This document shows positions 40,851-64,000 of a stretch of DNA of 64,000 bases, piece by piece (positions within the stretch are counted from its first letter, which is position 1; the number at the start of each line of letters is the position of its first letter). Source of the stretch: Gracilaria domingensis (lineage: Eukaryota; Rhodophyta; Florideophyceae; Gracilariales; Gracilariaceae); the NCBI GenBank assembly GCA_022539475.1, contig VCMS01000032.1, positions 278,238 to 342,237 of the forward strand, written 5' to 3'. A program made the position numbers and the translations under genes. The notes under the pieces were generated by a model that saw nothing but the letters and a program-made list of their open reading frames with translations, did not search any database and was not told where the DNA came from.

Positions 40851-40867
40851 GATAGTCTAACTACTAC

Positions 40868-41143: not shown

Positions 41144-41199
41144 AAGGCTGCCAATGGTGTTAGTTTTTCTTCTGTTGAGAGTCGAGATAGAACCTCAGA

Positions 41200-44074: not shown

Positions 44075-44496
44075 AAAACAAGTTGGTTCCTTGGCGATCT
44101 TGGATCTCTGACTGTTCGGGATAGACGATTCTGGTACTTGGTTGGGACATAGGCTGCTCTTTCGTTTATCGCATCTTGCGGTATGTTTGCTGCATGGGCA
44201 TTCTTGGTGCCCTTGCTTGTGAGTTCTCGCTTCGACACCTTTTGCGCTTTACGATGATGGTGGGCTGGTAATCTAACCGATCCCTTTCCTTCTTCTTCTT
44301 CCTTTTGCGAGTTACTAGGTCCCTCGACTTTTCTAGCGCAACGTTTCTGTTTTGTTTTATCAATGGTACGTTCCATCGCATTTCAAATGTATCCAACCGA
44401 TCTTTGACTAACTTATGGATACTTTCTGCTTGCGTATAGAGGTAAACGAATTTTGATGCGGACGTAGCTCACGAGTTTCAGGTGCAGGTTCCTTAA
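44075..44496. other. no gene seen between hairpins
   Basis: The minus frame 44376-44056 (106 codons, Lys/Arg/Glu-rich) overlaps hairpin 2 and has no recognised motif. I do not call it a gene. Confidence 0.35.
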
Positions 44497-44530
44497 GTAG
44501 GGAACCATGCATCTGGGCATGGTTCCCTAC
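44497..44530. repeat. hairpin 3 of a cluster
   Basis: GTAGGGAACCATGC, a 6-base loop, then GCATGGTTCCCTAC: perfect 14-base arms. Confidence 0.9.
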
Positions 44531-44540
44531 ATGTGGAACG

Positions 44541-44573
44541 GAGAGGATGAGGCGCTTCGCGCCTCATCCTCTC
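44541..44573. repeat. hairpin 4 of a cluster
   Basis: Perfect inverted repeat: GAGAGGATGAGGCGC and GCGCCTCATCCTCTC around TTC. Confidence 0.9.
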
Positions 44574-44620
44574 GGAGTGCGTATGTGTTCTACCGATACT
44601 GCACTTCGGTGGAGGTGCCC

Positions 44621-44640
44621 TCTGCGGCATCTGCCGCAGA
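44621..44640. repeat. hairpin 5 of a cluster
   Basis: TCTGCGGCATCTGCCGCAGA, 9-base perfect arms. Confidence 0.85.
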
Positions 44641-45205
44641 TTGCGCCTACATTGGCTTCATCATGGGGAAATGGTATATGTAATATAGCGAAGTAGTGGT
44701 TAGCAAAAACGGTCGATAGAAGAATAGATACGAATAAAACGGTATGATTTCATAATGGACATCATCTGTACTAGCAACAGTATTCCATGCGTTGCAGGGT
44801 ATTATTCCGCAGAAGGTATCGTGTAATGTGCCCCTTAATGGAAACTGAACCTAGACTTCGCGAAATACCGTTCAGGTAGCCCTCGACTAAAGAACTAGCA
44901 CGAGTGGAAAACCCACCAGTATTTACTGCACAGCGATTCTGGACGACCCAAGCAATTATCTTCAAATTTTGAAATAATTGATCTCGATATTTTTTCAAAA
45001 AATTTACTGGACGACCCTTGCCACTTTCTGGACGACCCTCGCCAAAAACTAGCATCTGCAAGAGACAGACGATATATTTATGTTCTCTCACATCCCTTCT
45101 CGGTTGTGATACAAGAGAAATACATCTCCAATAGAGACGGAGAATATAGTCGTGATAACACGTAAAGGTAACAATGTAATAAACAATAAATTTATGCTAC
45201 TATCT
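44641..45205. other. intergenic, no clear gene
   Basis: The minus frame 45091-44771 (106 codons) has no recognised motif. The stretch is AT-rich and would contain the 3' end of the epimerase transcript. Confidence 0.4.
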
Positions 45206-45917
45206 CTAACCAACCTTTCGAAAACCAGCTATGACATGAGCTGGGTTACTCGAGCCAAAGATGGCAGATCCTGCAACTAAAATGTTTGCACCGGCCTTCA
45301 CTACTCCTTTCACAGTACTCAGTCCAATACCCCCATCCACCTGTATCCCTATTCTTGGGTACAACTCCCTTGCATGTCGCGCCTTATCAAGAACACCCCC
45401 CATAAACGCCTGTCCTCCAAACCCTGGCTCCACCGTCATCAACAATAACATATCTACAACTCCTTCCTTCATAAGTGCTTCTACGACCTTTATAGACGTA
45501 TTCGGGCGCAACGCAACGCAACTCCAACCTGCATTCCCATCCTTTTAATTCGGTTACATAATTCCTTCAACACCACGTTCTCCTCCTCAGTTGGTACCTC
45601 GCACTTTTCTAGACCCTTAGCCACACTCTCGATATGAAATGTGACTCCGTCTGCGCCTGCTTCTGCAAGGTCTTTTATCCAGCGCCCAGGATCTGATACC
45701 ATCAGATGACAGTCCAGAAACAATTTCGTATGCCTCCGCAACGATTTCACAACAGGCGTCCAACAATAAGGTTCGCCACAAAATGACCATCCATTACATC
45801 TATATGCAGCCACTCCGCTCCAGCCTCTTCCATTGCACTCGCTTCATCTGAAAAGCGAGCAAAGTCTGAAGCCAAAATTGATGGCGCTATAATTAAACGA
45901 GAATCCATACTGAACAT
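45206..45917 (-). CDS. RPE: ribulose-phosphate 3-epimerase (two frame breaks)
   Basis: The enzyme interconverts ribulose 5-phosphate and xylulose 5-phosphate in the pentose phosphate pathway and Calvin cycle. The TIM-barrel signatures are in order: [12 protein letters not shown] near the N-terminus, metal-binding [32 protein letters not shown] and LVAGSAIFG near the C-terminus. The start ATG is taken at 45917 (or 45908), ~45 bases after a TATA box. No transit peptide is visible, so this is probably the cytosolic form. The frame breaks at ~45790 (about one base missing after HFVANLIVG) and at ~45505, where a 5-base unit GCAAC is repeated once too often. Both are single small indels in an otherwise well conserved protein, so sequencing error or a very young defect is likely. 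Confidence 0.9.
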
Positions 45918-45960
45918 CGATAACTTCAGTAACGCCAAACCCGTCCTTCCCAGACACACC

Positions 45961-46369: not shown

Positions 46370-47272
46370 ATGAACTCCCAGTACGACATGCCTCCGACTC
46401 CGCCTCCGAGTCCCAGATACTCTGACGTCCCTCAGGCCTCATCTCCCACCCGAAGGACTCGGGCCGTTATTGTAGGAAGGGGGCGTATAGGTGCCATGCT
46501 GGCGAACGAAGAAGATATGGTCATTTCCGCACACGAATTCTGCAGCATGGCTGCTACTTCTCATCTTTCTGATGTACCGATACTAGTTTGTGGAAGAACG
46601 AACACCCTGGAGACCGTAATTCAGGCTTGCCCTTATTCGCTCAGAGAGAATCTCGTTTTCTTCCAGAATGGAGACATCATACCATTGGTTTCGAAGCTCG
46701 GTGTTGACAAATGTTCAAAAGTTGTCCTATACGTTGGTGTCCCCTCAAGAAACGCAGCTCCGCAGGATGGTGTCACTCCTGAAATTCCAGATGGTCTCAC
46801 TGTCGCAACAGGAAAGTGGGCCTCCAACGTTGCAGACAGGTTTAGGTCTATGGGTCTCACTTGCGGGGTTGTCGACGAAGACACATTTCTCGTAAGCTAT
46901 TATGAGAAGCTCCTGTGGCTATCAGCGTTCAACATCGTCGGGGCCTCAAGAGGTTTCATTCTCATGGACGTAGTCGCTACGGAGTGCAGTACGGTTGTGC
47001 TCACAATAATTAAAGAGCTGTTGAAGATAGTTTCGCTTAAGACAGGTACTACTTTCAACCTGGAAGAGACCGTTGGGCGACTTCTTGCATATGGGAAAAC
47101 TCTCGTTGGCTTCCCTACTTCTTTCTCCGACTTTCAGTTTAGGAACGCGTACTTCTACGACTTTTCCCGCCAAGAAAGAAACAACGTAGGCGATGACCCC
47201 GCTCCTTTTCATACAAACTACGTCAACGTTGTTAAAGAAAAGCTACCCCCCTCCCCATTCCCCCAGCTTTGA
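46370..47272 (+). CDS. ketopantoate-reductase-like protein
   Basis: The 300-residue product from the ATG at 46370 (the first after the upstream Ser/His-rich, unlikely extension) begins with a Pro-rich leader. It then shows a dinucleotide-binding start, RAVIVGRGRIGAML (GxGxxG, residues ~35-47). Later ILVCGRTN, LVFFQNGDI and the KLLWLSAFNIVGA region correspond to the NAD(P)-binding domain and the Lys-containing interface helix of the ApbA/PanE ketopantoate reductase family, which reduces 2-dehydropantoate for coenzyme A synthesis. The substrate is uncertain. Similarity to the real enzyme is remote and other NAD(P)-dependent reductases share this pattern. The gene is intact and single-exon. Confidence 0.6.
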   Translation: MNSQYDMPPTPPPSPRYSDVPQASSPTRRTRAVIVGRGRIGAMLANEEDMVISAHEFCSMAATSHLSDVPILVCGRTNTLETVIQACPYSLRENLVFFQNGDIIPLVSKLGVDKCSKVVLYVGVPSRNAAPQDGVTPEIPDGLTVATGKWASNVADRFRSMGLTCGVVDEDTFLVSYYEKLLWLSAFNIVGASRGFILMDVVATECSTVVLTIIKELLKIVSLKTGTTFNLEETVGRLLAYGKTLVGFPTSFSDFQFRNAYFYDFSRQERNNVGDDPAPFHTNYVNVVKEKLPPSPFPQL

Positions 47273-47899: not shown

Positions 47900-48772
47900 A
47901 TGTATAACTCACAAGTTAGAGCCCAGGAAGTAACTCCTCAGCAGCTGGCTAACGAAATATTCGAAAATGGCTACGCCGTCATTAGTGATATTGACGGTAA
48001 TCTGAAAAGAGCTGGGGAGAACATTCCTGTCGAAACAGTCAAATGCATGAAGTACATCAATGCACGCGTTGGTTTCGGAATTGCTACTGGGCGAGATATA
48101 GAGGATGCCGAGAGTTTCATGGAGCACCTGGGTGGCTACACTTTCGGCATCTCTGGAAACCAAGGCGCACGGGTGAGATTATCCAATGGTACCGAAATTG
48201 ATCAGGACCTTGAGAGGGAAGGCTACGAAAGATGTGCAGCCGAACTTGAGAGACTTGCACTCTCCTTAAATGAATCGCACGGACTTCACGAAGAGCGTCA
48301 ACAAGCAGTTGTGAGCACTAGAAAAGACAGTGGACTCCCTAACTTCACGTACAATGGACTGTCGAAGTGGAAAACAGAAGTTAACTCCGGTATTTCAAAA
48401 GTGTTGACATCCTTTCCGAACCTGGTTGCGTACCCTCAAGATGAAAACTGTGACATAGGGGACATTCGTTTCACGAAGAACAGTGGGGCGCTAGCCTTCG
48501 TTGAAAACGACCCCCAGTTCGACACACATTTAATCGTTGCTTTCGGGAATGCTTCCAATGATGGCCCTCTATATGAAATGGCAACCCTGGCAGTTCATGT
48601 GAAGGGAGACGACCCTCCAGCAGCGGTAACATTTCTTGATGGGTGGAGGACGTGCATGAGACCATCAGAAGGGTGGCAGAACTGTACGGGTACAGAAAAT
48701 GCAAGTGTCAATGGTTTAGAAATGCTCTGGGAATTTGTTTCAAGTGCTACGATGCCTGTAATACTTAGCTAG
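47900..48772 (+). CDS. HAD-superfamily phosphatase (Cof/trehalose-phosphatase-like)
   Basis: The 290-residue protein starts at an ATG at 47900. Motif I is ISDIDGNL (residues ~27-34), giving the DxD nucleophile and acid/base pair. The segment GFGIATGRD supplies motif II, and VAFGNASNDGPL near residue 220 supplies the acidic motif IV. A cap domain lies between (TRKDSGLPNFTYN...). This is the layout of C2-cap HAD phosphatases that act on sugar or trehalose phosphates. The exact substrate cannot be read. A polyadenylation-type AATAAA follows 17 bases after the stop. A paralogue faces it tail-to-tail at 48821-49732. Confidence 0.7.
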   Translation: MYNSQVRAQEVTPQQLANEIFENGYAVISDIDGNLKRAGENIPVETVKCMKYINARVGFGIATGRDIEDAESFMEHLGGYTFGISGNQGARVRLSNGTEIDQDLEREGYERCAAELERLALSLNESHGLHEERQQAVVSTRKDSGLPNFTYNGLSKWKTEVNSGISKVLTSFPNLVAYPQDENCDIGDIRFTKNSGALAFVENDPQFDTHLIVAFGNASNDGPLYEMATLAVHVKGDDPPAAVTFLDGWRTCMRPSEGWQNCTGTENASVNGLEMLWEFVSSATMPVILS

Positions 48773-49996: not shown

Positions 49997-52900
49997 TCAT
50001 CCACTTCGAGGCGCTCGCAGCCTCATTATTGGCAAATCGTCATCACTACTACTCTCGAGCACTTCGGTTCTACCGGCGTCCGCTTCCACACCAATCTCCA
50101 CGACCAAGTGGTCTTCTTCCATGTCAACCGCCCCACCCTCCTTATCGGACAACAGTTCATCCTCCGCCTCCTCCTCCTCGTCACCATTGACAAACGTGGG
50201 TCGGAAATCCCGCACCCGATGAAGAGCATCAGGTAGTGCGTAGCCCTCTGGTACCATGTACATGTGGTATCTAACCAGCAAATCCATAGACTCGGGCCTA
50301 TCCGCCTTGTCCTTCCCACTTGCTCCAGCATGTGTCACATCACCACGGCCCACGAATGCAAAGTACGGTGGGATGATTATCTTCTTCGCTGGATACACCT
50401 CCGACATCACTCGCAACTGTTGGTTGTTCATCCCCACTAGTTGATGGCTTCCAGCACTCACCCAGAGAGGAAAGTCCTCTTTCCCAGAGGCCATTACAAA
50501 GTATCCGGGGTTACCAGTATTCATTGTTTCCTTCGTAACCAGACCACTGAAGTCGGTGTGCAGCGTCTGGCGCTTGCACTTTCTCGTCGTCCCCAGAAAT
50601 CGACCACCAGTTTTCGGAGTGTACATCTTCACAGCTTCCCTTTCATTGTCCCATAGTCCCAAAGCCGCAGCAATTGTACCCATTCGAACATCAAGGAAAG
50701 CACGTGGCCTTACAACCCACCTGAGCTCCTCATCATCCTCCGGCTTCTCCACCGTACCCCAACGTGTCGACATCACTCTCCCCTGAAATGTTCCATCGCT
50801 ACCGTCCTTCCATCCTTCATCATCGTTGATTATTTGAACAAACGACTTCTGTTTCTCCCCTTTCCGTATATCCGGCATCGCTCCATACTCATTCTCGAAG
50901 AAGTCCACCAACTTCCCCGACACATCTCCGAACTCCCGAACTTCTTCCAACTCCTCCCATTTAGGGACACCATTATCCGGCGCAAAGCCATCAAGCACGC
51001 AATATCCATTCTGCCTTAGCTCAGCTTGCATTCGGGCGAAGAACATTTGCCCAAATTCGTCATGCTCCTTCGCAGCAACCCACAGCACCTCTTCATCATC
51101 CATACCTGTCGGACGAGTACGAGGATACTGCATACCAAATGTCTCCGCCCGTAGGCGATGTTCAGCCCTTGCAGTCTGCCAAAAGACAGGATGGTGTACA
51201 TCTCTGAGATTCGAGACACTTAGCAGCTCCGACCTATGTCCCTTCGGCAAGTGAATGACTCTGAGCCAGGGGTCCTTGTGCTCAATTACGTTCTTCCCTT
51301 GCCATTCCAGCGGTCTCAGCCTGACATACCCGCACCATGATGGGTTCGGTGGGCCATCATATGGGTCACCTCGAACAAGTCCGTGCTCCTCAGATTCCGG
51401 AAGAGCTGTAGGTAACTCGTCATCAAATGACCCCCCACCTGTCTCTTGCTGATCGTCTGGCGCAGCATCTTTCTCGACGGTGACAACCCGTGGAACTGTC
51501 ACAGCAAGAAGCTCTTCGTCATCTACAAATGCAGAACTACCTGCGTTCTCTGCATTCGCTCCCTCTTCCAATGCCACGAACTGAACCTTCATCGACCTTC
51601 CTCTCAGCACATGTTCATTTAGTTGAGACATCAGGTCATCCGGTGTCATGCTGTTCAGAGTAGATCTCATCTGTTGTGTGAAAATCTTTCTCCGTTTCTT
51701 CCTCGGCGGAGCCCGCTGTTCTTCTTCAGAGCTATCCAGAACTTCTATGGCACCTCGATTTCGGCCGTGCTCAATTTCCCTATAACTCACCTGCGCCCGT
51801 TCTCGTGCACTTCTTCGCAGCTCCCCTTCTTCACTGGCAGATGTTGCAGCAGCAGCAGCGGGAGTCCTCCTCTTCGTCATGGACTGCTTCACTGGTGCGG
51901 GGGGCGGAATTACCTTGAGCATCGTCCGCAATCGATTCTGAACGGAATTCGTGGCAGTTCTAATTGAGTTCATCCTGCTCCGAACACGCGGCAATGTGTT
52001 GAAGTTCACAACTTGTCCCAAAAGGAACTGATTCACAGCTGCGTTGTTGTCTGGGTCTTCAACGTCATCTTCATTCGATGGAGCAGACAGACTGATTTCG
52101 CGTTTCAGGAACACTTCCATGGACTCTTCCTCGTTCAGTTCATTCCTCACTGCTCGAGCCGCGCGGAACAGAGACACTGCTCTATCATAAAAGAAACCTC
52201 GAACCTCCTTAAAGCTTTTCCATTGCTTTGTCTTCGTCGACTTGCCCTTCAATAGAAACATCTGAAGACAATCAAGAATGAAGGAAAACTCCTTGGCATC
52301 CAAAACATATAGCGGAGTATGGGACAGATGTGTGAGACCTATGTCACCCACACTCTCACATATATCCTCGAAATGGGCCAGCATTCCCTCACGAGACATG
52401 AGTTGCAGGGCGACATTGGCATATCTCAGATACCGACGCTCTTGCACAGTCCCAATCAGTTGGCTCTCCTTCAACACTTCTGCCACTTCTGCAGGATCCA
52501 CGTCGGCTGGCGTCACCCCCTCAACATCTTCAATTAGAATAGTGACCACACTAACTATAGAGTGTATCTTGTCTGCAAACATCATCCTTCGCATGGCACT
52601 CGTCGACTCATTGAGGTACGAAGCAACACATAACAATTTCTTCATCCCAATGGGCCTCCCATCTCTTCGTATGAGCAGATTGCAACGCCAAAACCTGGCT
52701 AATCGCTTCCAATTCGGTGCAGCAGTCGCTGCCAAATATTGTATAGCTTTGAGACGATGCAAACCATCTACAATGAAGCACTTCTTCGTTAGGCGTCCCT
52801 TGTCAGTATCCCTCTCTCCCGTAGTGCATCTTGTAAGGCCACCACTGGAGAACCCATGGACTGCAATATCCCCCGCTCCTCGATACTCTTCACAAGGGCT

Positions 52901-53913
52901 TCAACGTGGCGTTTTCTTACTCCACGGAGTAAATTGGGCGGAGTGTCCACCAGAGTGATGTCAACCGTAACAACAACCATCCGGTACTGATTGAGGTTCA
53001 CCTTTGGTACCTTCTGACGAATTCGTCTGTACGTCTTGCTCCGAGTAGGTGTCCCTTGTGTTCCAGACCGCTCGCCAGAAACACTTGAACGTGCCATTCT
53101 TGCGGACAGAAGCACAACGTCATCGTCCTGCTGCTCCGCAGTTTCTGGTGCAGTTTGGGGTACAGATAGACCAGCTCCTTGTGCGGATTGCGCATCCGCG
53201 TCTGGAAGGGGACCTTTTATGATCTCATCTTCCTCTTCTTGCACAGCCGTCCCGTGCTGAACCGTCTGTTTCGACGCAGAAGATCCCCTTGTGTCGACGG
53301 TTTGATTCATCGCAGGAGATGCCCTTTTCGACGCAGTGGGCTTCGTAGCGGAGGTAGACTTTGTTTGACCTGTCCGCTTCGTACCTGGGGATGCTCTCGT
53401 CTCCATAGACCGCTTCATAAGAGACGACGGACCTGCCAACGGAGGTGCTACTGATGCGCTACCTCTCGGTGTTGATGAACTTCGAATTGGCTCCGTGCGG
53501 CTTGTCGGCGTCATCACCTCACTCATAGCGCTCACCGTTCGTCGCTTGGACGCCGGAATGCTGGCTGCCACCGGTTCCATCATTTTCTCATCCCAAGGAG
53601 CGGCCGTCCGGAGATCCTGGATGTATTGTGGAAGATCCAGGCCCTCCGCTCGGTAAGGGTAGAACGTGTGACCGCTTCGACTGATGAGAATATTATGAAC
53701 CACCACAAGACCTGGGTCCAATTGCTTTCCGTTCAACTCGCGGCGTAGAACACTTCCAATTCCATGCAACAACGCTTCCCCGACTATCACCTTTCCTTCA
53801 TTCTCAATATCCATCTGCAGAGAAACCCGCATTCCACCTTGCAATGATCGAGTGCTCCGCCGAGTGCAAGGAGTCACGCTTTGCGTACGCTTTCGACCAC
53901 GAGTTCGCTTCAT
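49997..53913 (-). CDS. ParB-like domain plus 2-oxoglutarate/Fe(II) dioxygenase fusion
   Basis: The gene reads from an ATG at 53913 to a stop at 49997, about 1,300 codons, with one frame break at ~52810 inside a GAGAGAGGG run. The N-terminal part is basic and Ser/Thr-rich. A ParB-like fold follows: the strand VVVTVDITLVD, HVEALVKSIEERGILQ (~residues 330-347), and just past the break CFIVDGLHRLKAIQYL, the DGxHRxxA signature. Then come a helical region, a basic nuclear-localisation-like PPRKKRRKIF, and a dioxygenase core near the C-terminus with iron ligands in TLHTDFSGLV (His, Asp) and DVTHAGASG (distal His), plus an Arg in LLVRYHMYMV that could bind 2-oxoglutarate. The pattern resembles DNA-base oxygenases (TET/JBP type) more than protein hydroxylases, but this is inferred. 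An acidic tail ends it. Confidence 0.7.
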
Positions 53914-54850
53914 GTTGAACAGCTATTGCAGTGAAAGGTGTATATCAACAATACGCTCGCTCTGGACGATACAAGAACGGAGGCGAGCCTTTAAATGGCG
54001 ACTTACGCTGGGCACACCCGCTTTCGGCAGCTCCTCCCAGCGCACTGCAAGTCTCGTCCGTGTCCTGTCCGTGGCCGCTCGCACGCTGATTGTACGCTTT
54101 AGAGTCGTGGAGTTCGCGCAATGATGACTCATGCGAGCAATGGTCGCGCTCTCTAATCGTGCTCTTCAAATGCTTTGCATAGTAGTCAAGAGTACACTCA
54201 TTCACTTTCATGTACAGCTTACTCCCGCCAATACACGTGGACAGCGGCGCCAACGTACCGGCGGCCGGGTGTAGCGAAATCACTGCGGGGTGGCGTGTTT
54301 TGAGGGGTCCCGGGAAGGCGCCAGAATGTGGCCAGAACGTGCCCCCGAGGGGGGGGGGTCGGTCGTGTTAGGGTAGGTACCCTAACGCGACCGGACCCCC
54401 CCGCCCGCGGGCATAAAATCGCACATTTTTCAAATAATCGCCCAAAACGTGGCCGCGGGCGGGGGGGTCCGGTCGTGTTAGGGTACCAACCCTAACACGA
54501 CCGACCCCCTACGCCCGCGGGCACGTTCTGGCCACATTCTGGCGCCTTCCGGAGAACTCCCAAAACAATCCTCCTGGCACTTCCGGCAGTGATTTCGCTC
54601 CACACGCCGTGCACATATATCAAACTAGAAAAAACTAGCGCTTCACACCCACTTGATCCGCGACTTTTAGCACAATACGGGACCTTTGCAATAGCTCCGA
54701 ATCGCGACGTGGCCGACACGCGACGCTATCGCACCGAGCGGACACGGACACGGACGAGACTGGCAGTGCGCTGGGAGGAGCTGCCGAAAGCGGGGGTGCC
54801 CAGCGTAAGTCGCCATTTAAAGGCTCACCTCCGTTGTTTGCGCTGAAGCG
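53914..54850. promoter_or_regulatory. palindromic bidirectional promoter between divergent genes
   Basis: An imperfect palindrome runs from about 53970 to 54840, centred at ~54420. Outer arms 53985-54075 and 54745-54836 are reverse complements. Each contains CCTTTAAATGGCGACTTACG or its complement, with TTTAAA as a TATA-like core pointing at the dioxygenase gene on one side and the 54851 gene on the other. A middle pair is GCGAAATCACTGC at 54274-54286 and its complement at 54586-54598. The centre holds telomere-like hairpins. The symmetry implies that both genes receive the same promoter. Confidence 0.75.
54285..54570. repeat. telomere-like hairpins at the promoter centre
   Basis: Two units of the type GTGTTAGGGTA..TACCCTAAC with G/C-run flanks (about 54345-54400 and 54455-54515). 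They are bracketed by a longer inverted repeat (AAGGCGCCAGAATGTGGCCA near 54315, complement near 54530). They are the same family as 39505-40078. Confidence 0.85.
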
Positions 54851-55797
54851 ATGGATTTCACCGATGATGGAGAGGAGATACATCCTATCGACATGAGTGC
54901 TCCGCCTCCGGCGTTCCATGAATATGTCAGACTTTTCTTGGTTCTTCGCGATGCTTTGGCAAACAGCGATGGAGGCCCTGATCGGCCACGGGACGTGGGG
55001 TTTAGAGGGCAAATAGAGTTCTGCGCCGAGAACTATAAGGATATTCCGGAGGCAAGGAAGATGTTTGAGGAGGCCACTAACTCCAAGAACCTGCAGAACT
55101 TGACACTGCAACAGCTGCGAAAGAGTGTTGTGAATAACAAACCTGTGGAACAACGATATATTGTAACGAAGCTTCTTGACAAGAAGGACGGGGATGAGGA
55201 CCAGAGACTCCGCGATTTTTCCTTCTCTCTATGGATATGGGTATATATCTACCGGTGCGATGCCTGCTTGGTTATTTCATGACCAGGAGAAAGCTGGTTC
55301 TGAAGATGACAGTGTTCATCCCACCAACAGCTGTGAACTCATTTGAGGTCGTTATATACTTATCATACCTCGGCCACATAATGGGAGAGAACGACAACAT
55401 CAGAATGATGAAGAAGAAACAACCGAAAAAGAAACGAAAATTGAACCATGCACCATCTGTGTACATACCCACTTTTACGTCGTTCTCCAAAGACAACTGT
55501 GATCGACTGGGATTCGCTATCAGTGAGGTCGTATGGGCATGGAGTTGTTTTGCGGCTCATCTTGGATACATGAACGTTCAGCACATGGTGAAACCATACA
55601 TTTACATGAATATGCAGACGTTGAAGTATACAGCGCTAGAGACACGGGAGTCTGGTTATGCCCCGCCGAGCCAGAGTGCTCGATTCAACACAAAGGATGT
55701 GCCACAGAGCAGTACTAGTGGATCGGTGGAGACCTTGAGTGATGAATGCGATACAAACCTCCGAATACTGGCTAAGGAATTTTTGACAGACCTCTAA
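54851..55797 (+). CDS. cassette protein 1, unknown, nuclear-type
   Basis: The first gene of the plus-strand group begins at an ATG at 54851, 30 bases after the TTTAAA core. The first 143 codons are in one frame: an acidic Pro-containing start, then a helical region with NLTLQQLRKSVVNNKPVEQR. At ~55235 the protein continues in another frame to a stop at 55797, with a basic KKKQPKKKRKLNH stretch and a Ser/Thr-rich tail. The switch could be an indel or a very short intron (a GTGCGA...GACCAG of 32 bases at 55255-55286 would restore the frame). No domain is recognised. A decayed copy exists at 40600-40850. Confidence 0.5.
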
Positions 55798-55842
55798 ACC
55801 ATATGCACCCACGATAGCCTCTATAGCTTACGGGTTGATCAG

Positions 55843-57987
55843 ATGAGGAACTGGATAGAGTTTTCAGGGATACGGATGGATACCGTATCTGGTTCTGACT
55901 CCGGTGAGTTGCCTGCACGATTTCAGAACTTTTCGGAGTTGCTATGGAAACCGATACAGGATATGCGTCATGCGGCAGGGTTCAATGTGGGCATTCACGC
56001 GAAACCCGATATTGAACTGACGAAAACTCCTAAAACTTCCGGTAATGCCGAACCTTTTTCGACCAAGTCTGCCCCAGCCCCACCTCGTCGAGAGTATATA
56101 GATCTCGTGAGCTCCGATGGCGACGACTTCGAGAAGCCGGTGAATCCTGCGGAGCATGAATCTCGGGTTGCCGGGTACAACATCCAAAAGACTGGTATTG
56201 AGCCGCCCATGAAGGGGATATCCAGTCTCCTTCGAATGAATATGGACAAGGTGTGGAAGGGGATGAGAAAGTCACACTTTGTAGCGTACAACTGTGACAT
56301 GAAGGACATGAGGCACACACACGAAACGTTAGTGAATCAGAGTGAGATTTTATGGGGTGAGGCACAGCTTGTCCTAACAGACCCTTCCTTTAACACTCGA
56401 AGGAAGAGGAACAAACGGAATAGTTCTCACGATGTCTTCAGTGAGGATGACATGATCCGTACGGCTGACTTAATAAGTTCCGCGCTTCGGTCAGGTGGGC
56501 ACTTCATCATATTCTGTGCAATGGCACAGTTTCATGTTTAGCACAGGATACTTTCGGAAACGGTGAGTACGAAAGATGAAGCTGGAAGCGAAGGTAAACC
56601 AGAACTCATTCTTTCATTTAAAGTGGATGGGAATCCACTGGTGTTCATCCGGGATCGAAGTAATGTTGGAGGGAATCCACGGAAGTTTGGGATACAGCCC
56701 GTAACGGAGTACGCCGTTCATGGGGTGAAGCGTGGATTGCGACCATCGGAGGAAGCCAGTCTTACTCCATTTGAGGAGAACAATTTCATTCCTTCTACTT
56801 TCCCGGCTAACAGGAATGTAATTGACCGGGTGCCAAAACCGAGAGCGGGGGAGTGGTGGACATGGAAGGTACATGAGCCAGGTAGTTCAGTACCAAGTGG
56901 GCAGTACATAAGACCGGAGCAGAAGTCCAGGGAGTTGATGAAAGAGTTGATATGTCGCTTCACAAAACCGGGTGATCTTGTCATGGACATGTTCGCGGGA
57001 ACTTTTTCTACGGGTATGGCGTGCCTCTCGCTGACAAAGCATAGGAAGTTCTTGGGGTGCGAGAAGAATAGGCCATGTTTCAGCCATGCGAAGCACCATG
57101 TAACGACTCTTATGGCCGAAGTTCTTCGCGAGGGGAAGAATGACATCGTGGTTGAACAGGAGGTGGTGGATGCTGCTTCAACGACTTATGAACGGGTCCC
57201 ACATCGGGACCGAGGTCGGCTTGAATGGGAGGCTCCATTTGGATACCCCCAGTACCAAGTGATGCCTGCACATATTACTCAGTTCCTAGGAAGATACTGG
57301 AAGGACTGGGAGTTTGTCGACAAGTGTGGACAGTATACTGTAGATCTTTGGGACCAGAAGTACCGAGGAGCTCTGAATCTAATGGATATGCATATGCTGT
57401 TGACTGCTGAAGCCAATCGCTATCGCTTACATGTAGCATCTTCTAAGATTCGACATCCCCGTGCTGGTATGGGGGTGTTCACGGAACATAAGATATTGGC
57501 TGGGGAAACTATTTATCATCTTTATGGAACTTTGGTATACACGGATCTGACGAACCGGAAGGAAAGACACTTAACGTATGGAAGTGGCTGTCTCGGAGCA
57601 ACTCCAGTGCGGTACAAGTTGTTTTCTATGATGGTCACTGTGACTGGTACGGAGTTTCTGCACCTGAGGAACAGACCAGAACAGGCTCAGGATAGAAAGG
57701 AGAGCGAAGTGTACATTGTCCTGGCGCCTTTTTGTATCGGGGGCTACATTAACGACGCCGGATATCATGCCGGGGATCCCGATTTATCGCAGCCCCGGTC
57801 AAACAGGACTCAAAGTGCCAATATGCAGATGGTGGAAGCGAAGTCCGTGATACAGTTTAAGTCCGACCTTTCTAACTATGCTCTACTTCGTTGTAGAGCA
57901 GTAAGAGATATTGAGAGGGGCGAAGAGTTGTATTTCAACTACGGAGAGCAGTACGCCTGGGACTGGGCTCTGACATTGGAGCAATAG
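55843..57987 (+). CDS. DNA methyltransferase - SET domain fusion
   Basis: A 714-codon frame is interrupted only by an in-frame TAG at 56539-56541. The N-terminal half has the circularly permuted order of beta-class N4-cytosine/N6-adenine DNA methylases. The catalytic DPPY-type motif appears as LTDPSFNTRR (~residues 178-187) with GGHFIIF after it. The SAM-binding half follows with SRELMKELICRFTKPGDLV and MDMFAGTFSTG (residues 362-391), and FLGCEKN. The C-terminal ~170 residues are a SET domain: GMGVFTEHKILAGETIYHLY, YINDAG (N-D-A at the binding site) and GEELYFNYG. It would thus join DNA methylation to histone-lysine methylation. Ser replaces Pro in DPPF/Y, so activity is uncertain. The TAG falls inside the methylase domain. 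Confidence 0.75.
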
Positions 57988-58238
57988 ATGAGTTCAGTAC
58001 CGCATAGAAAGTAAATATGCTTGTGAATATTGCAGCTGCCTGCAATACGCGTTGTACATGTACACTGGAGCTCTTCATCTATTTGTAACGGCGATATTTG
58101 CGACCCATTGGGCAACTCAAATTCCTAAAAAGCAGGAACTGCGGAGTCTCGCGGAATATCTGAACCATGTACCCCCCGCCCCCCCACCCCTCCCCCCCCC
58201 CAACAATTTCGTTTCATTACCCCGTTTATCTCCACAAC
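57988..58238. other. intergenic with long C-tract
   Basis: No gene is seen. A pyrimidine run of about 30 bases, nearly all C (about 58170-58201), lies ~40 bases before the next ATG. On RNA level it could act as a splice or pausing element. As DNA it is a G-quadruplex candidate on the minus strand. Confidence 0.45.
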
Positions 58239-59495
58239 ATGGGTATAACGCCGAGAAAGCGAAATAGTACGCAGCGGAACAAGAGTGGACAGAAGAAGAG
58301 AAGAGCATCATATGATACGAATCAGGCTACAAGCACCGCACGTCCTAAACGGAAGTCGTCCTCGACGAAGGAGAGAGTCAGTGGGCGTCGTTCTACAGTA
58401 CTCTCTCGCCCATCCGGCAGCGGAGAGTCTTCCGGGATTGCGTCAAGAATTCGTGGATCAGCGAACGATGTCGTGCCGTCAACTGCCGATAATGCAAATC
58501 GTGCATCTGTCTCTGCTCCTCAAGAAGATGAGGTAACTCGGCCCAGCGGGTCAGGACAGGAGGCCATGACAACTGGAACTGAAGAGGTTCTTATGACACC
58601 AAAACCTTCATGTCCCCGGCCGATATCGAACACCGGAGCTACTGGGGCGCGGGTTACGCCGCCCAGTGGATCTGGACAACAAGGGACAATGACGAGAAGT
58701 CGTGAGAGCCCTATTATATTAGGATCGTCACGTCCCTCCCTGTCTTCTAGAACTGGGGCCGCTATGAATCGTATTATGCCTCGCAATGGGTCCGGACAAG
58801 GGAGAAAGACTATAAGAAATCGAGAGACAACTGATAGACGAGTTACTCCTCGACCTTCCCCTCTTTCCAGAACGGGGGCCGTTGCAGCTCGTACGAGGCC
58901 CAATTCATCTGATATACGATGCCATGGAGGAGGACAGACACGGGAGTTGGAGCTCGGAGCCGTGCCAAGGGTGGACACAGAACGCCTGCAGCCTCTCGTG
59001 TCTAAGGCTATGGCACATGAGGATAGTTCTGATAACGAAATAACACCGAATCCTGCGGCATTACCGGGGCCTGTCGCCGAAGAGGCTAGGGGAACACCGG
59101 AAGATATCCCCACTGGTGTGAATTCAACCTCTATGAACAGAAGTGATCTTTTAAATGAACTGAATTGCTTGAAAGAAAAGGTTAAGACGCTACAAGAGGA
59201 CTTGATGGTTCGGGAAATTCTAGTGAAGGTCGCCCAAGAGCAGAGTACGGCTTTGAAAAAGAGGCTTGAAGAGAAGGATTTAGTCATTGAAGGGCTAAGA
59301 GGGGCACTGAAACAGGAGGGAGATAGGAGTACACGTGCTGGTGAACCTGGGCAGACAGGTCGAAAGAAGCATAAAATTGAGGTGTGCGACGAGTTTCGAG
59401 GGGTTGCTCCAGCAGTGTATCACAACATGCTGACGTGGGCAAGGAGAGAAACAAGTGAGCTATGGCTCGAAGGTGAGTCGCTCACCCGAAATTAG
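58239..59495 (+). CDS. cassette protein 2, disordered with coiled coil
   Basis: The 418-residue frame from the ATG at 58239 starts with a strongly basic, nuclear-type region (RKRNSTQRNKSGQKKRRAS). It continues as a low-complexity tail with five to six imperfect repeats of ~45 residues built on PSGSGQ, followed by a mixed segment and an S-R-T-G-A motif. It then shows a coiled coil at ~residues 300-375 (LNELNCLKEKVKTLQEDL, ALKKRLEEKDLVIEGLRGAL). The C-terminal ~40 residues look folded (VYHNMLTWARRETSELW). It probably scaffolds DNA-bound complexes. That is inference. The stop TAG at 59493 is in the same frame as the next ORF, so the two may form one protein. Confidence 0.55.
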   Translation: MGITPRKRNSTQRNKSGQKKRRASYDTNQATSTARPKRKSSSTKERVSGRRSTVLSRPSGSGESSGIASRIRGSANDVVPSTADNANRASVSAPQEDEVTRPSGSGQEAMTTGTEEVLMTPKPSCPRPISNTGATGARVTPPSGSGQQGTMTRSRESPIILGSSRPSLSSRTGAAMNRIMPRNGSGQGRKTIRNRETTDRRVTPRPSPLSRTGAVAARTRPNSSDIRCHGGGQTRELELGAVPRVDTERLQPLVSKAMAHEDSSDNEITPNPAALPGPVAEEARGTPEDIPTGVNSTSMNRSDLLNELNCLKEKVKTLQEDLMVREILVKVAQEQSTALKKRLEEKDLVIEGLRGALKQEGDRSTRAGEPGQTGRKKHKIEVCDEFRGVAPAVYHNMLTWARRETSELWLEGESLTRN

Positions 59496-59513
59496 GGTAA
59501 ATGTGCCGAGAAG

Positions 59514-60635
59514 GTGGAAGACGCAACTGAGAGTGGGGAAGGGCTTATTGAGCCGGAGGAAGGTGGTTCATACATGGTTCCTAAAAACCCCGTGGAGCTC
59601 TTGGGCAGTTTTGGCCTGTTCACACCGTCGGTAGAGGGGGGGCCAGATGCTTTGCTGAAGAAAATGGTTGAAAGCGAGTTGAAGGAGTTGAGCTGGGAAG
59701 GTATTAGAAAATCATCTCTTACCGACAGGTGTATACTGGAACTTTGTGCAGATATGTGCCTTAGGCAGGGAATGCGGCAGACCATGAGTGACCTCATGGG
59801 CGTTCGGAAGAGAAATACGAGGGATAAACTATTTCTGCTCCTGGGGTACGATCTGATTTGGAGAAGAACAAAGCTGGTAAAAGAGAATGCTGACGAACTC
59901 ACAATGAAGTTGAAGGAAGCGCAGGACAACATACTGCGTCTTGACGAAAATGGTGTACCGAACACCTCATGGTGGAGAAAAGCCCCATTTGTTCGTCTAA
60001 AGTACTCCAATGCGGACAATGTCGAGGATATGCCGACGGAAGATCAAGACTTGTTCTTCCGCAACCGTGTCGGGGTACAAGTACTGGAGGAGTTTATTGG
60101 GTATGATGTGGAAGACAAGGATACGGGCACCTTTTTAGATGGCACAATACTGTTGCTCGCACGTTTGGACGCTTGGGTGTTGACGGTTGTGAGCCTTCTA
60201 AGTACGGATTTGTCAAGGGGTGGCCAGAGACAGAAACTGTTTACAAAGAAGTTTGCCCAACTGCTACCTCTGTGTTTAAAGAATGTTCTGGGGGATGTTA
60301 GGCAACGTGTCTTGAGGACCAATTCCAGCGAGTTTCATAATTTTGGAACGACAACGGAAGATTTGACTAAGGTTCTTGGTAATGACATGAGAGAGGCTAC
60401 ATTTGGATATCGAATGCCGTCGAACGGAAGACTTTACCTCACTGTGAAAGAACAATTTCTTATTGACAGTGTGAGCCGAAGATTGGGGTCTATTAGCGAT
60501 TGTTTCGTTGGTGAATGCGAGGAAGGGGATATGGAGTTCAAAGAAATGGACATGAACGATTTCGGAAGTAGCACAGGATCACAAGAAAAGGCACCACAAG
60601 GTGAACATGTAGAGGATGGAGCCCTTAATGTTTAA
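59514..60635 (+). CDS. cassette protein 3, unknown, possibly the C-terminal half of protein 2
   Basis: A 373-codon frame that begins without an ATG (GTG at 59514; first internal ATG near 59575) and shares the frame of the preceding gene, separated only by the TAG at 59493-59495 and five codons. The boundary contains GGTGAGT, a donor-like sequence, and an acceptor that keeps the frame would give a 48-base intron. The product is helical and charged, with conserved-looking WWRKAPFVRLKYSNAD and FFRNRVGVQVLEEFIGYD segments and an acidic tail. No family is recognised. Its stop overlaps the stop of the convergent transposase by about 4 bases. Confidence 0.55.
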   Translation: MEDATESGEGLIEPEEGGSYMVPKNPVELLGSFGLFTPSVEGGPDALLKKMVESELKELSWEGIRKSSLTDRCILELCADMCLRQGMRQTMSDLMGVRKRNTRDKLFLLLGYDLIWRRTKLVKENADELTMKLKEAQDNILRLDENGVPNTSWWRKAPFVRLKYSNADNVEDMPTEDQDLFFRNRVGVQVLEEFIGYDVEDKDTGTFLDGTILLLARLDAWVLTVVSLLSTDLSRGGQRQKLFTKKFAQLLPLCLKNVLGDVRQRVLRTNSSEFHNFGTTTEDLTKVLGNDMREATFGYRMPSNGRLYLTVKEQFLIDSVSRRLGSISDCFVGECEEGDMEFKEMDMNDFGSSTGSQEKAPQGEHVEDGALNV

Positions 60636-63600
60636 GGCTGTACAAGATCAACGTGCTCAGTTGGTCCTTCATCTGAATCATGATAGAATCGATTGATGTA
60701 GAATCGGTGTTGAAACCATTGAAGTGGAGCACAAAAAGGTGGAGCAGGGTAGTTTGATCGAACAACATGGACAGTTCCCTGTAGTGCAGAAGCTGGAACA
60801 ATCCCGTACCAAGGAGTTAACTCTACGATAGTCTCCGCTTTGGAATGACGAGGGAACGGAAGAGTGTGGCTTTTCATCGTTTGTAGCTCACCGTAAAGAT
60901 ATGCATTTCAATATGTGGTCGATGTTTGTTGCGGGGGGTAAAACCTCGAAATACCGGACGAATGCCACCTCTGGTGCGGTAAGTGCAGAATCAAGGAGAG
61001 ATATTCGAATCAGAGCGACTACCTGGGCAACCCAAGTCTCTGAATCTTTTCCACTTACCAATACAGTGGAAAACTTTGGCTTTCTACTGGGACCAAACGC
61101 TGGAGAAGCGAAGACACGTTGGATGATGGGGTATTTGGGTCGTCCCAGCTTAAGTGCCTTAGAAGACGAATCGAAGTGTTCAAGAGTCGGAACGAAACCG
61201 CCTTTCACGAGGGCCGAATTCACCAGAGTTATCCTTGTCTTTTCTGGGAAGTATGTAATAGAGTGCTCATCCAGTGTTTCTTTCACGAGACTGAGGAAAG
61301 GAGGAAGGGCCTGTTCACCAATTTGGTCAAGAATCGACCTTGTTTCCGTACTTGAGAACATCTCTCTAACAGCAGTCCATGTTTTTTAACTGGACATACT
61401 TGAAACACAATGTTGAAGAGCTCGTAAAGTGAAAGAACGCCCTCTCATTGCAAACCGAGAAAGCTGTGTGGAAGTTCCTGGTAAACCTGGATTACGCTGG
61501 TAAGGAGTATTGCCATTCCATTGCTTTCTAACATGTCTGTGCTCAATGGAGCGAATAGTCTCCTCCACAGCCGTTGCTGTTCTTCTGGACGTCTTTTTGT
61601 AGTGTCTCTTAAATAGCAGGTGTGCATGTTCGTATATGCCTGCGTCGTAGTACTTGATACTTCCCAGACGGCGAATATCGTCCACGAGATGATCGAGAAG
61701 ATGAAACTTCAGAGTTCCCAGTCTGGAGGGATGAAAATCCGCCAGAGTCTTTGTTGCGGAACGCTTGAAGGCTTCAATCTCCGACCTAAGACACAGGAGA
61801 GAGCTTTCAGTCCAATACGGGTCACGATTGTATCTGAATAAGGTCGAAAGCAAGTCCGAGTACTGAGAGGAAACGGTTGTGATTGGGGCAACGTCCTGTT
61901 CTCTACAGCATATGTCAAAGAATGCTCTTATGAAGGGGAAGACCATGTCAAGTTCTTTGTAGTTTTTGGCCTCCAGCATTCCACGGAGACCGTCTTTCGT
62001 GAAGATACCATTCAAAGATTTGCCTTTGTCCTGCGTGGAGAAATCGATATGTAAACCTTTGGCAGGAGAATCGCGTTCTATGGCAGCTAGAATTGCGTTT
62101 GCATGGTTCAGGAGTTGGGTGCGTATCGTTCGAAATGAACGCGATGAAGATGTTCCTATTGTGGTGCACAGGGTGTCTGACTGCAGTCTCTCGATTGTGG
62201 CCGTTTTTATCAGCTTTGAGATGCCGAGATGCAAGTTGTGTAATGGTTCAAATGAGAACAGACTGTATGGAGACAATCCCGGGATCATTCCAAGGCTTAC
62301 GGAAGTTTCGAGGAACGAAGAAATGAGAGAAATGGAATTTGAACGCATCAGAGTATCCGCTTGAGATCTCCTCTCCCTCGCACGACGTGGACGTCTTTCC
62401 GCCTCGTCTTTTTGTGCATGTTGCAAGATAGCTGTGTATGTCTTTCGGATGCTTTTCGTGTGCTTTTGAGAACGTCCGTTGAATGAGGTGGGAATAGGAC
62501 TGCATAAAGATGAGCGAGGGGCTTTGCATCTATGACACGGGCTTTCCGTTTTGGTCCCATGAAGAATGGACAGAATGTCCTTAGCCTCAGGAATATCCGC
62601 ACAATAACTTGCAAGCAGAGGATGGCACACTCGACTTATTTTGTCTTCGCCGATGAACTGAAAACCTTTCTGCGTGAGATTTAGAATGGGCTCCAGGACT
62701 TGACGAAGAGATTCTTGAAGGATTTGGGTCCTGGACTCGCGTAGAGACTTGCTAGAAACGAATGGCATTTCGTCTGCTTCAGATGCGGAACCCTCGATCA
62801 GTGTGGTAGGGAAGTATGCCACTACTGTGAGGTCATCACGGATGCACTTACGGCGTAGCTCGTCGGAGAAGTTGGGAAATATGAGCTGAAGAGGATAGGC
62901 GGTAAATGATGTTTGCTTTAGAGTTGTTGAAGACTTATCGGTGTATACCTGCAGAAGACCTACGAAAGATTCACTGTAACCTATTTCTTGGGAGTACCAC
63001 ACTATTCTACTATCCAACGAGCCCATGACCATTTCCTTAAGTTTTGAGGTGGCGTCTCTTGCGAGAGAGCCGGACATGGGGTGAGATATTTTCGTGGAGT
63101 GGGTCTGAGGTATAGGGTGGAAGAATGTGTTTTCGTTGTTAGCCAACTGGGCTGTTTCACAAGTGTCTGAACGGGGTTCTCGTGTAGAGGGTGGCGCTGA
63201 ACTTACATCCTTCTGGCGAGACAGTTCTTCGATTGAAACCGTCCTTTGAGGCGTATCGTTCGAAAATGGCGTTCTTCAGTTCTGTACAGCGCTTGAACTT
63301 GTTATGGTCTCTTTGAATCGCTTTTGCGAGAATCGCGGGTCTCGAAGTAGCCCAATTAGCTCTGCTGCCTCACGATGACCAAGGTTGGAAGCTATTGAAG
63401 CCAGACAAACCGTGAGATAATCCATATGCAAATCACCGAGGGCCTCCTCAGAGGGCACTGGGCGGGAACTGCTTCCGTGTTCTCGCTCTAATGACGCGGG
63501 ACCCGGGAAGGAGAAACACAATGCGAAGTGTCCGGAATGGGAGGGCGCACGGAGTGGGGTCGACGATGTCCTTGGACACCGGAGGCTCGGGAAGGCGACA

Positions 63601-63725
63601 AGGGCAGTGACCGTTCGGAAGAGCGGGCGCGGGCGCGGAAAGCTTGAGACGCTTGCTTCTCCGAATGGGCCGCCTATTGTCGTCTTCCAGCGCTGCTTTC
63701 GACTAAACGGGGCAATGATTGACAT
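60632..63725 (-). CDS. Plavaka/CACTA-like DDE transposase, copy 2 (frame breaks)
   Basis: The gene runs leftwards from about 63725 to a stop at 60632, ~1,030 codons. Frame breaks lie at ~63275 and ~63150, an in-frame TAA at 61386-61388, and a last break at ~60880. The largest frame (63146-61386) shows the family landmarks: LLQVYTDKSSTTLKQ with the first acidic residue, DDLTVVAYFPTTL, ILHGTKTESPCHRCKAP (a zinc-type CxxC), FSFEPLHNLHLGISKL, and LGTLKFHLLDHLVDDIRRLG near the C-terminus. The tail WVAQVVALIRISLL...FEVLP and the final FYINRFYHDSD match the C-terminal end typical of Plavaka proteins. It would excise and insert the element. It is convergent with the cassette genes. Confidence 0.8.
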
Positions 63726-64000
63726 GCTGTTGAAGACGAAAGATCCTCAGCGAGTAACGAAGGGCACCCACGCTTCTTATGTGTACAGTAGTAGACCATG
63801 GGAAGAAGAAATGAAAGAGAAACGACGACAAAGACTGCAAGCGAAGGTCGTCTGCAAGGGAGAAGAGGTCGAGCCACAGTCAATATCGACGTCATATCAG
63901 AACGGGGGAATATATTTTGAGTTTAAATCACGTGGGCTTTCGTTCAAAAAAGGAACGTAGGTAAGTCCGACCTCAACACAAGGGGAACTTCTCGTATTAT
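63726..64000 (-). promoter_or_regulatory. upstream region of transposase copy 2, continuing out of the window
   Basis: This is nearly identical to 43240-43495. TATATTTTGAGTTTAAATC at 63911-63929 offers TATA-like sequence on either strand. The right end of the element is not reached. Confidence 0.45.

What the first reader, a model, noticed from the sequence alone, without database searches (positions are those of the whole stretch)
49997..64000. A transposon-linked cassette of DNA- and histone-modifying enzymes
Seen: within 14 kb lie a ParB-like/2OG-Fe(II) dioxygenase gene, a DNA-methylase-SET fusion, two or three unknown nuclear-type proteins and a Plavaka-type transposase, with divergent and convergent gene packing and almost no spare DNA (the last two genes overlap at their stops). 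Known: in basidiomycete fungi TET/JBP dioxygenases travel with KDZ-class transposons, and in rotifers a bacterial-type N4-cytosine methylase fused to a chromodomain silences transposons. Inference: here both writer and oxidiser, plus a histone-methylase module, are carried by one element, which may mark or unmark its own DNA to control its silencing.
Basis: partly seen in the sequence, partly recalled or inferred. Interest (0 to 1): 0.92.

Follow-up and report, generated by a model that had tools for sequence, protein, structure and literature searches.

The report
Algal transposon carrying DNA-marking enzymes
In a red seaweed genome a large, abundant DNA transposon carries its own bacterial-type DNA methylase fused to a histone-methylase-like domain, next to a second probable DNA-modifying protein and a cluster of palindromes, which suggests that a jumping gene can bring its own system for marking chromatin.

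Summary
The host is a red alga, Gracilaria domingensis or a near relative. The genes belong to a Plavaka-type (CACTA-related) DNA transposon of about 22.8 kb with ends CGTCTGT...ACAGACG; 2-bp target duplications flank 18 of 30 copies tested (chance about 6%), fewer among the longest. Each end occurs about 570 times in 78 Mb. The window copy is decayed and holds a nested 10.1-kb deleted copy. Intact relatives encode, without introns, a 1044-aa beta-class DNA amino-methylase fused to SET; a 1305-aa protein with a ParB-like domain and a putative 2OG-Fe(II) dioxygenase region; an unknown protein; and the transposase. Methylase-SET and transposase are under clear purifying selection. The two enzyme genes diverge from a promoter holding 1-5 long palindromes (1,695 genome-wide, control 0). 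One sequenced deleted copy lost methylase-SET and most of the dioxygenase gene but kept palindromes and ends. A metagenomic relative joins a ParB-like domain to methylase-SET. I infer self-marking of the element, nucleated at the palindromes. Dioxygenase chemistry, ParB-palindrome binding and any modified base remain unshown; TET/JBP membership is not supported.

The parts
32882..34929 (+). Left end and left arm of the outer, about 22.8-kb element (terminus CGTCTGTGTTCTGCA..., first base altered here); a lysine-rich ORF of 322-342 aa lies here on the - strand in four other copies
34930..45071 (+). Nested, internally deleted 10,142-bp copy with both ends, palindrome array, decayed transposase and GC-rich sequence of other origin; no match to the ParB/dioxygenase protein and only a decayed 55-aa trace of the methylase-SET start (40644-40808)
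   Evidence: empty site in three other copies
34928..34929 (.). 2-bp target duplication (AT), left side of the nested copy
45072..45073 (.). 2-bp target duplication (AT), right side of the nested copy
45195..45935 (-). Decayed ribulose-phosphate 3-epimerase-like gene (name recalled from motifs, no family search); half deleted in three other copies
46370..47272 (+). Rossmann-like ORF (ketopantoate-reductase-like by recall; no Pfam or NCBIfam hit)
47900..48772 (+). HAD phosphatase-like gene 1 (PF08282 42.6 bits, above cut-off); at least 114 match rows in the genome
48821..49684 (-). HAD phosphatase-like gene 2 (PF08282 20.6 bits, just below the cut-off of 20.9)
49997..53913 (-). ParB-like domain plus putative 2OG-Fe(II) dioxygenase gene (1305 aa in intact copy L036); frameshifted in the window
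53973..54065 (+). Arm of a 93-nt inverted repeat (96%) at the 5' side of the ParB/dioxygenase gene
54284..54579 (.). Palindrome array in the shared divergent promoter; cores GTTAGGGTA NN TACCCTAAC-like at 54367-54386 and 54477-54496, period 110 bp
54746..54838 (-). Other arm of the 93-nt inverted repeat, at the 5' side of the methylase-SET gene
54851..57987 (+). Beta-class DNA amino-methylase (N6_N4_Mtase) fused to SET; 1044 aa in intact copies, two stops and DPPF to DPSF in the window
58239..60635 (+). Unknown protein with low-complexity N-terminal half (798 aa in copy C296); one stop in the window
60632..63800 (-). Plavaka transposase (about 1,000-1,100 aa in open copies), broken in the window; approximate limits
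45002..45071 (+). Right terminus ...CTAGCATCTGCAAGAGACAGACG with CTGGACGACCC subterminal repeats (of the nested copy; that of the outer copy lies off the contig)

Best explanation
Shown: a Plavaka-type transposon of a Gracilaria red alga, about 22.8 kb when complete, carrying in many copies a bacterial-type DNA amino-methylase-SET fusion, a ParB-like/putative dioxygenase protein, an unknown protein and the transposase, plus metabolic genes that look captured. Inferred: the two enzymes form an element-specific chromatin-marking module. The methylase adds a methyl group to element DNA (N6-adenine more likely than N4-cytosine, from the DPPF/DPPY motif and the nearest bacterial relatives); SET methylates a nearby protein, probably a histone; and the ParB-like domain recognises the palindrome array in the shared promoter, concentrating the putative dioxygenase there to remove or convert a mark. 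The likely benefit is to keep the element's promoter and ends usable by the transposase. The products act in trans, so deleted copies that keep ends and palindromes can still be served.
For: Multicopy with sharp ends: left end 576 and right end 563 matches, reversed controls 0; 2-bp duplications in 18 of 30, among them C42 (13.1 kb, TA; methylase-SET match inside) and C6 (21.4 kb, TC; ParB/dioxygenase match inside); empty site in three copies. Purifying selection on shared variants: methylase-SET pN/pS 0.30 (0.21-0.43), transposase 0.19 (0.09-0.38). Both domains conserved at 41% identity in metagenomic P0001. Methylase region resembles beta-class N6A/N4C methylases among solved structures, including rotifer N4CMT (model pLDDT 53); nearest named relatives are mostly adenine methylases. 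P0006 joins a ParB-like domain to methylase-SET (its SET is below the Pfam cut-off), and viral ParB_N-N6_N4_Mtase fusions exist (L038, L039). Palindromes in 10 of 10 fetched copies, 1,695 places genome-wide with control 0. Deleted copy C8e (L100, L101; duplication GG) has lost methylase-SET and most of the ParB/dioxygenase gene but kept ends, promoter with palindromes and most of a broken transposase gene.
Against: No activity, modified base or binding is shown. The dioxygenase region hits no known family and its model failed (pLDDT 32). The ParB-like assignment is weak (PHROGs E 0.0085; no PF02195 hit; hhalign to viral ParB 0.2% probability, within shuffles). Selection on the ParB/dioxygenase gene is weak (shared pN/pS 0.58, 0.35-1.14). 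The deleted copies could have kept the palindromes by descent. Only 2 of 11 tested elements of 18.9 kb or more, and 2 of 6 with a listed enzyme match inside, have matching target duplications. The genome shows no C5-methylase hit, so what mark a dioxygenase would oxidise is unknown; reports of cytosine methylation in Gracilariales (PMC9861306, PMC8566409, passages) do not fit that easily.
Confidence: 0.5

Rival explanations
1. Passenger capture: the transposon picked up the enzyme genes as it did the metabolic ones, and they play no part in its life.
For: The element seems to capture genes (HAD, Rossmann-like, decayed epimerase-like); the ParB/dioxygenase and unknown proteins have shared pN/pS not clearly below 1; copies of 10-11.5 kb, too short for all the genes, are frequent (15 of 47 pairs), and the one sequenced lacks the enzymes.
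Against: Methylase-SET is about as constrained as the transposase; its layout persists at 26-42% identity in distant relatives, although only P0001 and P0003 have SET above cut-off; 9 of 90 match rows have a full 1055-aa stop-free frame.
Confidence: 0.2
2. Anti-silencing by self-methylation alone: methylase-SET hides or activates the element; the other protein is not a dioxygenase but a DNA-binding partner.
For: The dioxygenase call rests only on H-x-D...H...R motifs; no family or fold support.
Against: These motifs are invariant, with similar spacing, in three sequences at 29-32% overall identity, as expected for the 2OG-Fe(II) fold (motif knowledge recalled).
Confidence: 0.2
3. The palindromes serve the transposase or the unknown protein (like CACTA subterminal sites, recalled), or are promoter or hairpin elements, and have nothing to do with the ParB-like domain.
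For: Retention in deleted copies; CACTA-type elements have a second DNA-binding protein (recalled); the ParB-like domain match is weak.
Against: They lie in mid-element and not near the ends, between the two enzyme genes.
Confidence: 0.35
4. Host gene cluster next to an ordinary transposon.
For: None found beyond the window itself.
Against: 90 methylase-SET, 47 ParB/dioxygenase and 114 HAD rows, with collinear blocks in the fetched copies.
Confidence: 0.01

Closest known systems
TET+ Plavaka and other TET+ DNA transposons of fungi (Kojima 2025, PMC12730594; seen: abstract, introduction, section 4.2, passages)
   Same: Plavaka-type transposase, short target duplication (2 bp in PlavakaA, 2 or 3 bp in PlavakaB), a putative DNA-oxidising enzyme on board, proposed anti-silencing role
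   Different: Red alga; dioxygenase not recognisably TET/JBP; ParB-like domain; adds a DNA methylase-SET fusion and promoter palindromes; termini CGTCTGT..ACAGACG and not TGT..ACA or CATCA..TGATG
Transposons with SET genes (HarbingerS and MuDR of Phytophthora; cited in the introduction of PMC12730594)
   Same: A DNA transposon carrying a SET methylase
   Different: Here SET is fused to a bacterial-type DNA methylase, in a Plavaka element
Retrotransposons with C5-methylases in dinoflagellates and charophytes (de Mendoza 2018, PMC5890265; abstract seen)
   Same: A eukaryotic mobile element with its own DNA methylase
   Different: C5-cytosine enzyme in retrotransposons; here an amino-methylase in a DNA transposon
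Bdelloid N4CMT (Rodriguez 2022, PMC8885841; passages seen)
   Same: Bacterial beta-class N6_N4_Mtase in a eukaryote coupled to a chromatin domain; related fold
   Different: Host gene with chromodomain that silences transposons; here carried by the transposon with SET; DPPF/DPPY motif
Viral (IMG/VR) ParB_N-N6_N4_Mtase fusions (L038, L039)
   Same: ParB domain joined to the same methylase family, as in P0006
   Different: No SET or dioxygenase; homology of their ParB part to the algal domain not detectable by hhalign

Membership tests
Plavaka / CACTA-related (CMCT) DNA transposon | Plavaka transposase domain above the curated cut-off | tested here: met
   PF18759 64.7 bits, cut-off 26.3, 996-aa frame
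Plavaka / CACTA-related (CMCT) DNA transposon | 2-3 bp target duplications | tested here: met
   2-bp match in 18 of 30, 3-bp in 0 of 30; mispaired 2-bp background 24 of 380 computed on the first 20
Plavaka / CACTA-related (CMCT) DNA transposon | Short terminal inverted repeats of published type (TGT..ACA or CATCA..TGATG) | tested here: not met
   Inverted ends exist but read CGTCTGT..ACAGACG; so a Plavaka relative, not PlavakaA or PlavakaB as published
Plavaka / CACTA-related (CMCT) DNA transposon | C(2)C motif of the transposase | tested here: met
   CHRC in 9 of 10 aligned copies, one gapped; DDE residues not assigned
KDZ transposons | KDZ-type transposase or associated domains | tested here: inconclusive
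   The element's transposase is Plavaka; one search with CxC2 (PF18803; KDZ link recalled) gave 0 but no control rang
TET/JBP dioxygenase | Tet_JBP family match | tested here: not met
   No match for the 1305-aa protein or its relatives; PF12851 0 in the genome, but no control rang
2OG-Fe(II) dioxygenase fold | H-x-D...H...R with double-stranded beta-helix | tested here: inconclusive
   Motifs invariant in three sequences; fold not obtained, pLDDT 32
ParB family / parS system | ParB N-terminal domain | tested here: inconclusive
   DG[LR]HR motif; PHROGs ParB E 0.0085 (L036) and 0.027 (P0006), none for P0009 or P0010; no PF02195 hit; hhalign to P0006 24.7 against at most 19.1 in 20 shuffles, but to viral ParB 12.0, within shuffles
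ParB family / parS system | Binding to a palindromic site and NTP-dependent spreading | not testable with these tools
   Palindrome array present; no binding data
Beta-class DNA amino-methylase | Domain match, DPP[YF] before FxGxF, matching fold | tested here: met
   PF01555 56.9 bits, cut-off 26.7; motif order; Foldseek 1e-10 to beta-class enzymes with a model of pLDDT 53
SET lysine methylase | SET domain with GxG, N and ELxFxYG motifs | tested here: met
   PF00856 32 bits, cut-off 22.4; motifs (recalled) intact in 14, 15 and 14 of 15 copies

The most novel reading that the evidence does not exclude
A eukaryotic transposon runs a plasmid-partition-like targeting system: a ParB-like clamp loads at parS-like palindrome arrays in mid-element and spreads, carrying a DNA dioxygenase (and in relatives such as P0006 the methylase-SET itself) over the element, so that the transposon writes, edits and couples DNA and histone marks on its own copies, including deleted ones, independently of host C5 methylation.
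Probability: 0.2. Interest if true: 0.95.

Novelty: new variant of a known kind. Interest (0 to 1): 0.8.

Why it matters
Transposons with one epigenetic enzyme are known; here one element joins a bacterial-type DNA amino-methylase to a SET domain in one protein, adds a second putative DNA-modifying protein and keeps a palindromic site between the two genes. It adds a candidate eukaryotic 6mA/4mC writer that belongs to a transposon, in a genome where the search found no C5-methylase, although about 8% genome methylation biased to non-CG sites is reported for a relative, Gracilariopsis chorda (PMC8566409, passage). It makes testable whether transposons can create their own, host-independent epigenetic marks.

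Tried and rejected
Host-gene reading: rejected by copy number. KDZ reading: one search with CxC2 (PF18803) gave nothing, and no control rang. TET/JBP: no hit (also 116, where no control rang). Structure: the dioxygenase part failed (pLDDT 32) and was not searched; P0001 gave pLDDT 53, and of its Foldseek hits (first 50 seen) all listed ones were methylases, so nothing was learnt of its N-terminal half or SET part. The third homology search (profile A1) found only the two Gracilaria proteins again. IMG/VR: 0 relatives of the ParB/dioxygenase protein and 3 weak methylase ones. Plasmids: 0 for P0009 and P0006; phages: nothing credible for P0010. PADLOC: only methylase matches. CpG decay as a sign of 5mC: C>T or G>A 0.0071-0.0082 per CpG site against 0.0059-0.0064 elsewhere, weak. 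Palindrome covariation: symmetrical changes at 3 flanking positions in 24 distinct, related arm pairs, not convincing. Selection on HAD1, HAD2 and the Rossmann-like ORF: too few shared variants. Target duplications: 30 of the 47 listed pairs were tested, 17 not. Papers not held: two looked up by DOI.
Full report
Host. The window is the end of contig C32 of a 77.9-Mb genome of 680 contigs. Phycobilisome linker domains match at 14 places on several contigs, and the ParB/dioxygenase protein matches two Gracilaria domingensis proteins at 89 and 92% identity. The host is therefore a red alga (Rhodophyta, Gracilariales), that species or very near it, and not a fungus.

What is in the block. Intact copies elsewhere show what the window copy once was. 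Methylase-SET is a 1055-aa stop-to-stop frame, 1044 aa from ATG (L015), with PF01555 (56.9 bits) and PF00856 (32 bits), both above cut-off. The ParB/dioxygenase gene is one 1305-aa ORF (L036). The two unknown ORFs of the window are one gene, 798 aa from ATG in copy C296. The transposase frame reaches 1100 aa. None needs an intron. The window copy has a frameshift in the ParB/dioxygenase gene, two stops and a changed DPPF motif in methylase-SET, one stop in the unknown gene and a broken transposase. It is a dead copy.

It is a transposon with defined ends. Ten copies of 20 kb were aligned to the window and three were extended to the left. The element begins with CGTCTGTGTTCTGCA and ends with TGCAAGAGACAGACG. 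The window holds two: an outer element starting at 32882 and running off the contig, and a nested one (34930-45071) inside it. Three other copies show the unoccupied site, GGGGATATATT, against GGGGAT[element]ATATATT, that is a 2-bp duplication. Flanks of 30 elements, of 47 pairs formed from 100 listed left and 100 listed right ends, show a 2-bp match in 18 of 30: 13 of 20 and 5 of 10. No 3-bp match was seen. Mispaired flanks of the first 20 match in 24 of 380. Two further copies read with both ends, C57 and C164, do not match. By size, 16 of 19 below 18.9 kb have the duplication but only 2 of 11 at or above it. Of the 30, six hold a listed enzyme match (C6, C29, C34, C38, C41, C42), and two of those six have it: C42 (13.1 kb, methylase-SET, TA) and C6 (21.4 kb, ParB/dioxygenase, TC). 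I suspect assembly joins inside repeats longer than the reads, or recombination, in the long copies; this is not shown, and their flanks should not be trusted.

Copy number. Left end 576 places (up to 3 mismatches) and right end 563 (up to 2), reversed controls 0. Protein matches: methylase-SET 90 rows (89 of 748 candidates scored), ParB/dioxygenase 47 (of 1066), HAD1 114 (of 1157), Plavaka 123, part of which seem to belong to other families (of 672); all are lower bounds. Nine of the 90 methylase-SET rows have a full 1055-aa frame without stop. The 47 paired elements run from 6.4 to 24.3 kb, with 15 at 10-11.5 kb and 5 at 22-23.5 kb.

Deleted copies keep a centre. L100 and L101 cover 8.5 kb of a 10,328-bp element (C8e, duplication GG). 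It kept left arm, Rossmann-like gene, the start of the ParB/dioxygenase gene, the promoter with two palindromes and most of the transposase gene in broken frames, and lost HAD1, most of HAD2, most of the ParB/dioxygenase gene, methylase-SET and the unknown gene. The nested copy of the window has palindromes, no match to the ParB/dioxygenase protein and only a decayed 55-aa trace of methylase-SET. On C1-C9, 10 of 12 elements with both ends listed hold exact palindromes, and all 46 listed exact palindromes there lie inside such an element (30) or within about 12.2 kb of an element end (16) (only exact matches were listed, so the two without may hold altered ones).

The palindrome. The shared promoter of the two enzyme genes carries 1-5 copies, mostly about 110 bp apart, of a dyad with core GTTAGGGTA NN TACCCTAAC and GC-rich arms, in 10 of 10 fetched copies; over 32-bp arms the best match perfectly and the worst of these have 12 mismatches. 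The pattern with up to 2 mismatches occurs at 1,695 places, control 0. In 24 distinct arm pairs six of the eight GTTAGGGT positions never vary (the search pattern itself favours this core). A further 93-nt inverted repeat (96%) flanks the array.

Selection. Among variants shared by two or more copies pN/pS is 0.30 (95% bootstrap 0.21-0.43) for methylase-SET, 0.19 (0.09-0.38) for the transposase, 0.58 (0.35-1.14) for the ParB/dioxygenase gene and 0.66 (0.42-1.30) for the unknown gene; singletons lie at 0.61-0.82. Methylase-SET and transposase have thus been kept functional while the family spread; for the others this is not established within the family. Motifs: TDPPFN in 12 of 15 copies; DG.HR in 9 of 11; H-x-D in 8 of 9 covered copies and the later H and R in 9 of 9.

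Relatives. Methylase-SET has six metagenomic relatives: P0001 (41% identity over 96%) and P0002-P0006 (27-30%). P0001 and P0003 carry SET above cut-off, P0006 below it, P0002 without a hit; P0004 and P0005 have no SET in the precomputed list. P0006 begins with a ParB-like domain: weak PHROGs ParB match (0.027), and its first 140 residues align with the ParB-like region of the algal family by hhalign at 24.7 against at most 19.1 in 20 shuffles. The same test against the ParB part of two viral ParB_N-N6_N4_Mtase fusions (L038, L039) gave nothing above shuffles. The ParB/dioxygenase protein has two distant relatives, P0009 and P0010, which share with it DG[LR]HR, LH[TS]DF, GRGD..H.G and RYH.Y.VP. 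No family library recognises the second half. I call it a putative 2OG-Fe(II) dioxygenase from motif order alone (motif knowledge recalled).

Mechanism. The methylase part belongs with beta-class N6-adenine/N4-cytosine methylases: Foldseek about 1e-10 to TTHA0409, CcrM and M.BceJIV, and 5e-8 to rotifer N4CMT, with named relatives mostly adenine-specific. DPPY is given as the N6A motif in PMC8885841 (passages seen); hence 6mA is the better guess. The genome search found no C5-methylase (control rang in 10 of 14 genomes; exon-by-exon search), and CpG sites decay little faster than others. Against this, reviews report methylation-sensitive marker changes in Gracilariopsis and demethylation in Gracilaria dura (PMC9861306, passages) and about 8% methylation, mostly non-CG, in Gracilariopsis chorda (PMC8566409, passage). 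I propose that methylase-SET writes marks on element chromatin and that the ParB-like protein, nucleated at the palindromes, edits them. The steps shown are the anatomy, the mobility, the selection on methylase-SET and transposase and the retention of palindromes in two sequenced deleted copies; every biochemical step is inferred.

Comparison with print. TET genes on fungal Plavaka and other transposons, and SET genes on oomycete Harbinger and MuDR elements, are in print (PMC12730594; abstract, sections 4 and 26 and passages seen). DNA methylases on retrotransposons are in print (PMC5890265; abstract). [quoted passage not shown] passage). Marchantia 4mC enzymes are mentioned in PMC8566409 (passage). 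None of my ten searches listed, by title or start of abstract, a report of this element or of a methylase-SET fusion on a transposon; the library lacks most subscription papers, and two older ones on fungal TET transposons and eukaryotic adenine methylation (topics recalled) were not held, so this is not proof of absence.

Noticed in passing
window 35400-39500: GC-rich (62-64% at 36-40 kb) sequence inside the nested copy with membrane-protein-like reading frames (by eye); looks like captured host or foreign DNA.
   Followed up: no
window 10875-12319: Ty3-like polymerase fragment outside the element (identified by eye).
   Followed up: no
L026 about 165-651: A 482-bp piece of the element's right end (like window 44590-45071) inserted alone at window-equivalent 58147 in copy C211; left edge truncated, GTC on both sides.
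   Followed up: partly
L034 reverse strand, about 2211-3222: A related terminus about 75% identical to this family's left end: perhaps a second, older element family.
   Followed up: no
genome rows with profile 105-317: Further Plavaka-like families with open frames up to 1110 aa in the same genome.
   Followed up: no
P0007, P0008: Public Gracilaria domingensis proteins of this family are named 'cell-wall-anchored protein SasA' and 'mediator subunit 15-like'; these names look wrong.
   Followed up: no
elements of 18.9 kb or more: Only 2 of 11 have matching target duplications against 16 of 19 shorter ones; may mark assembly errors at long repeats.
   Followed up: partly
window 53973-54065 and 54746-54838: 96% complementary 93-nt inverted repeat making the two enzyme genes' 5' regions mirror images.
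   Followed up: no
window about 5750-6490: Masked stretch reads as N (X in the frames).
   Followed up: no
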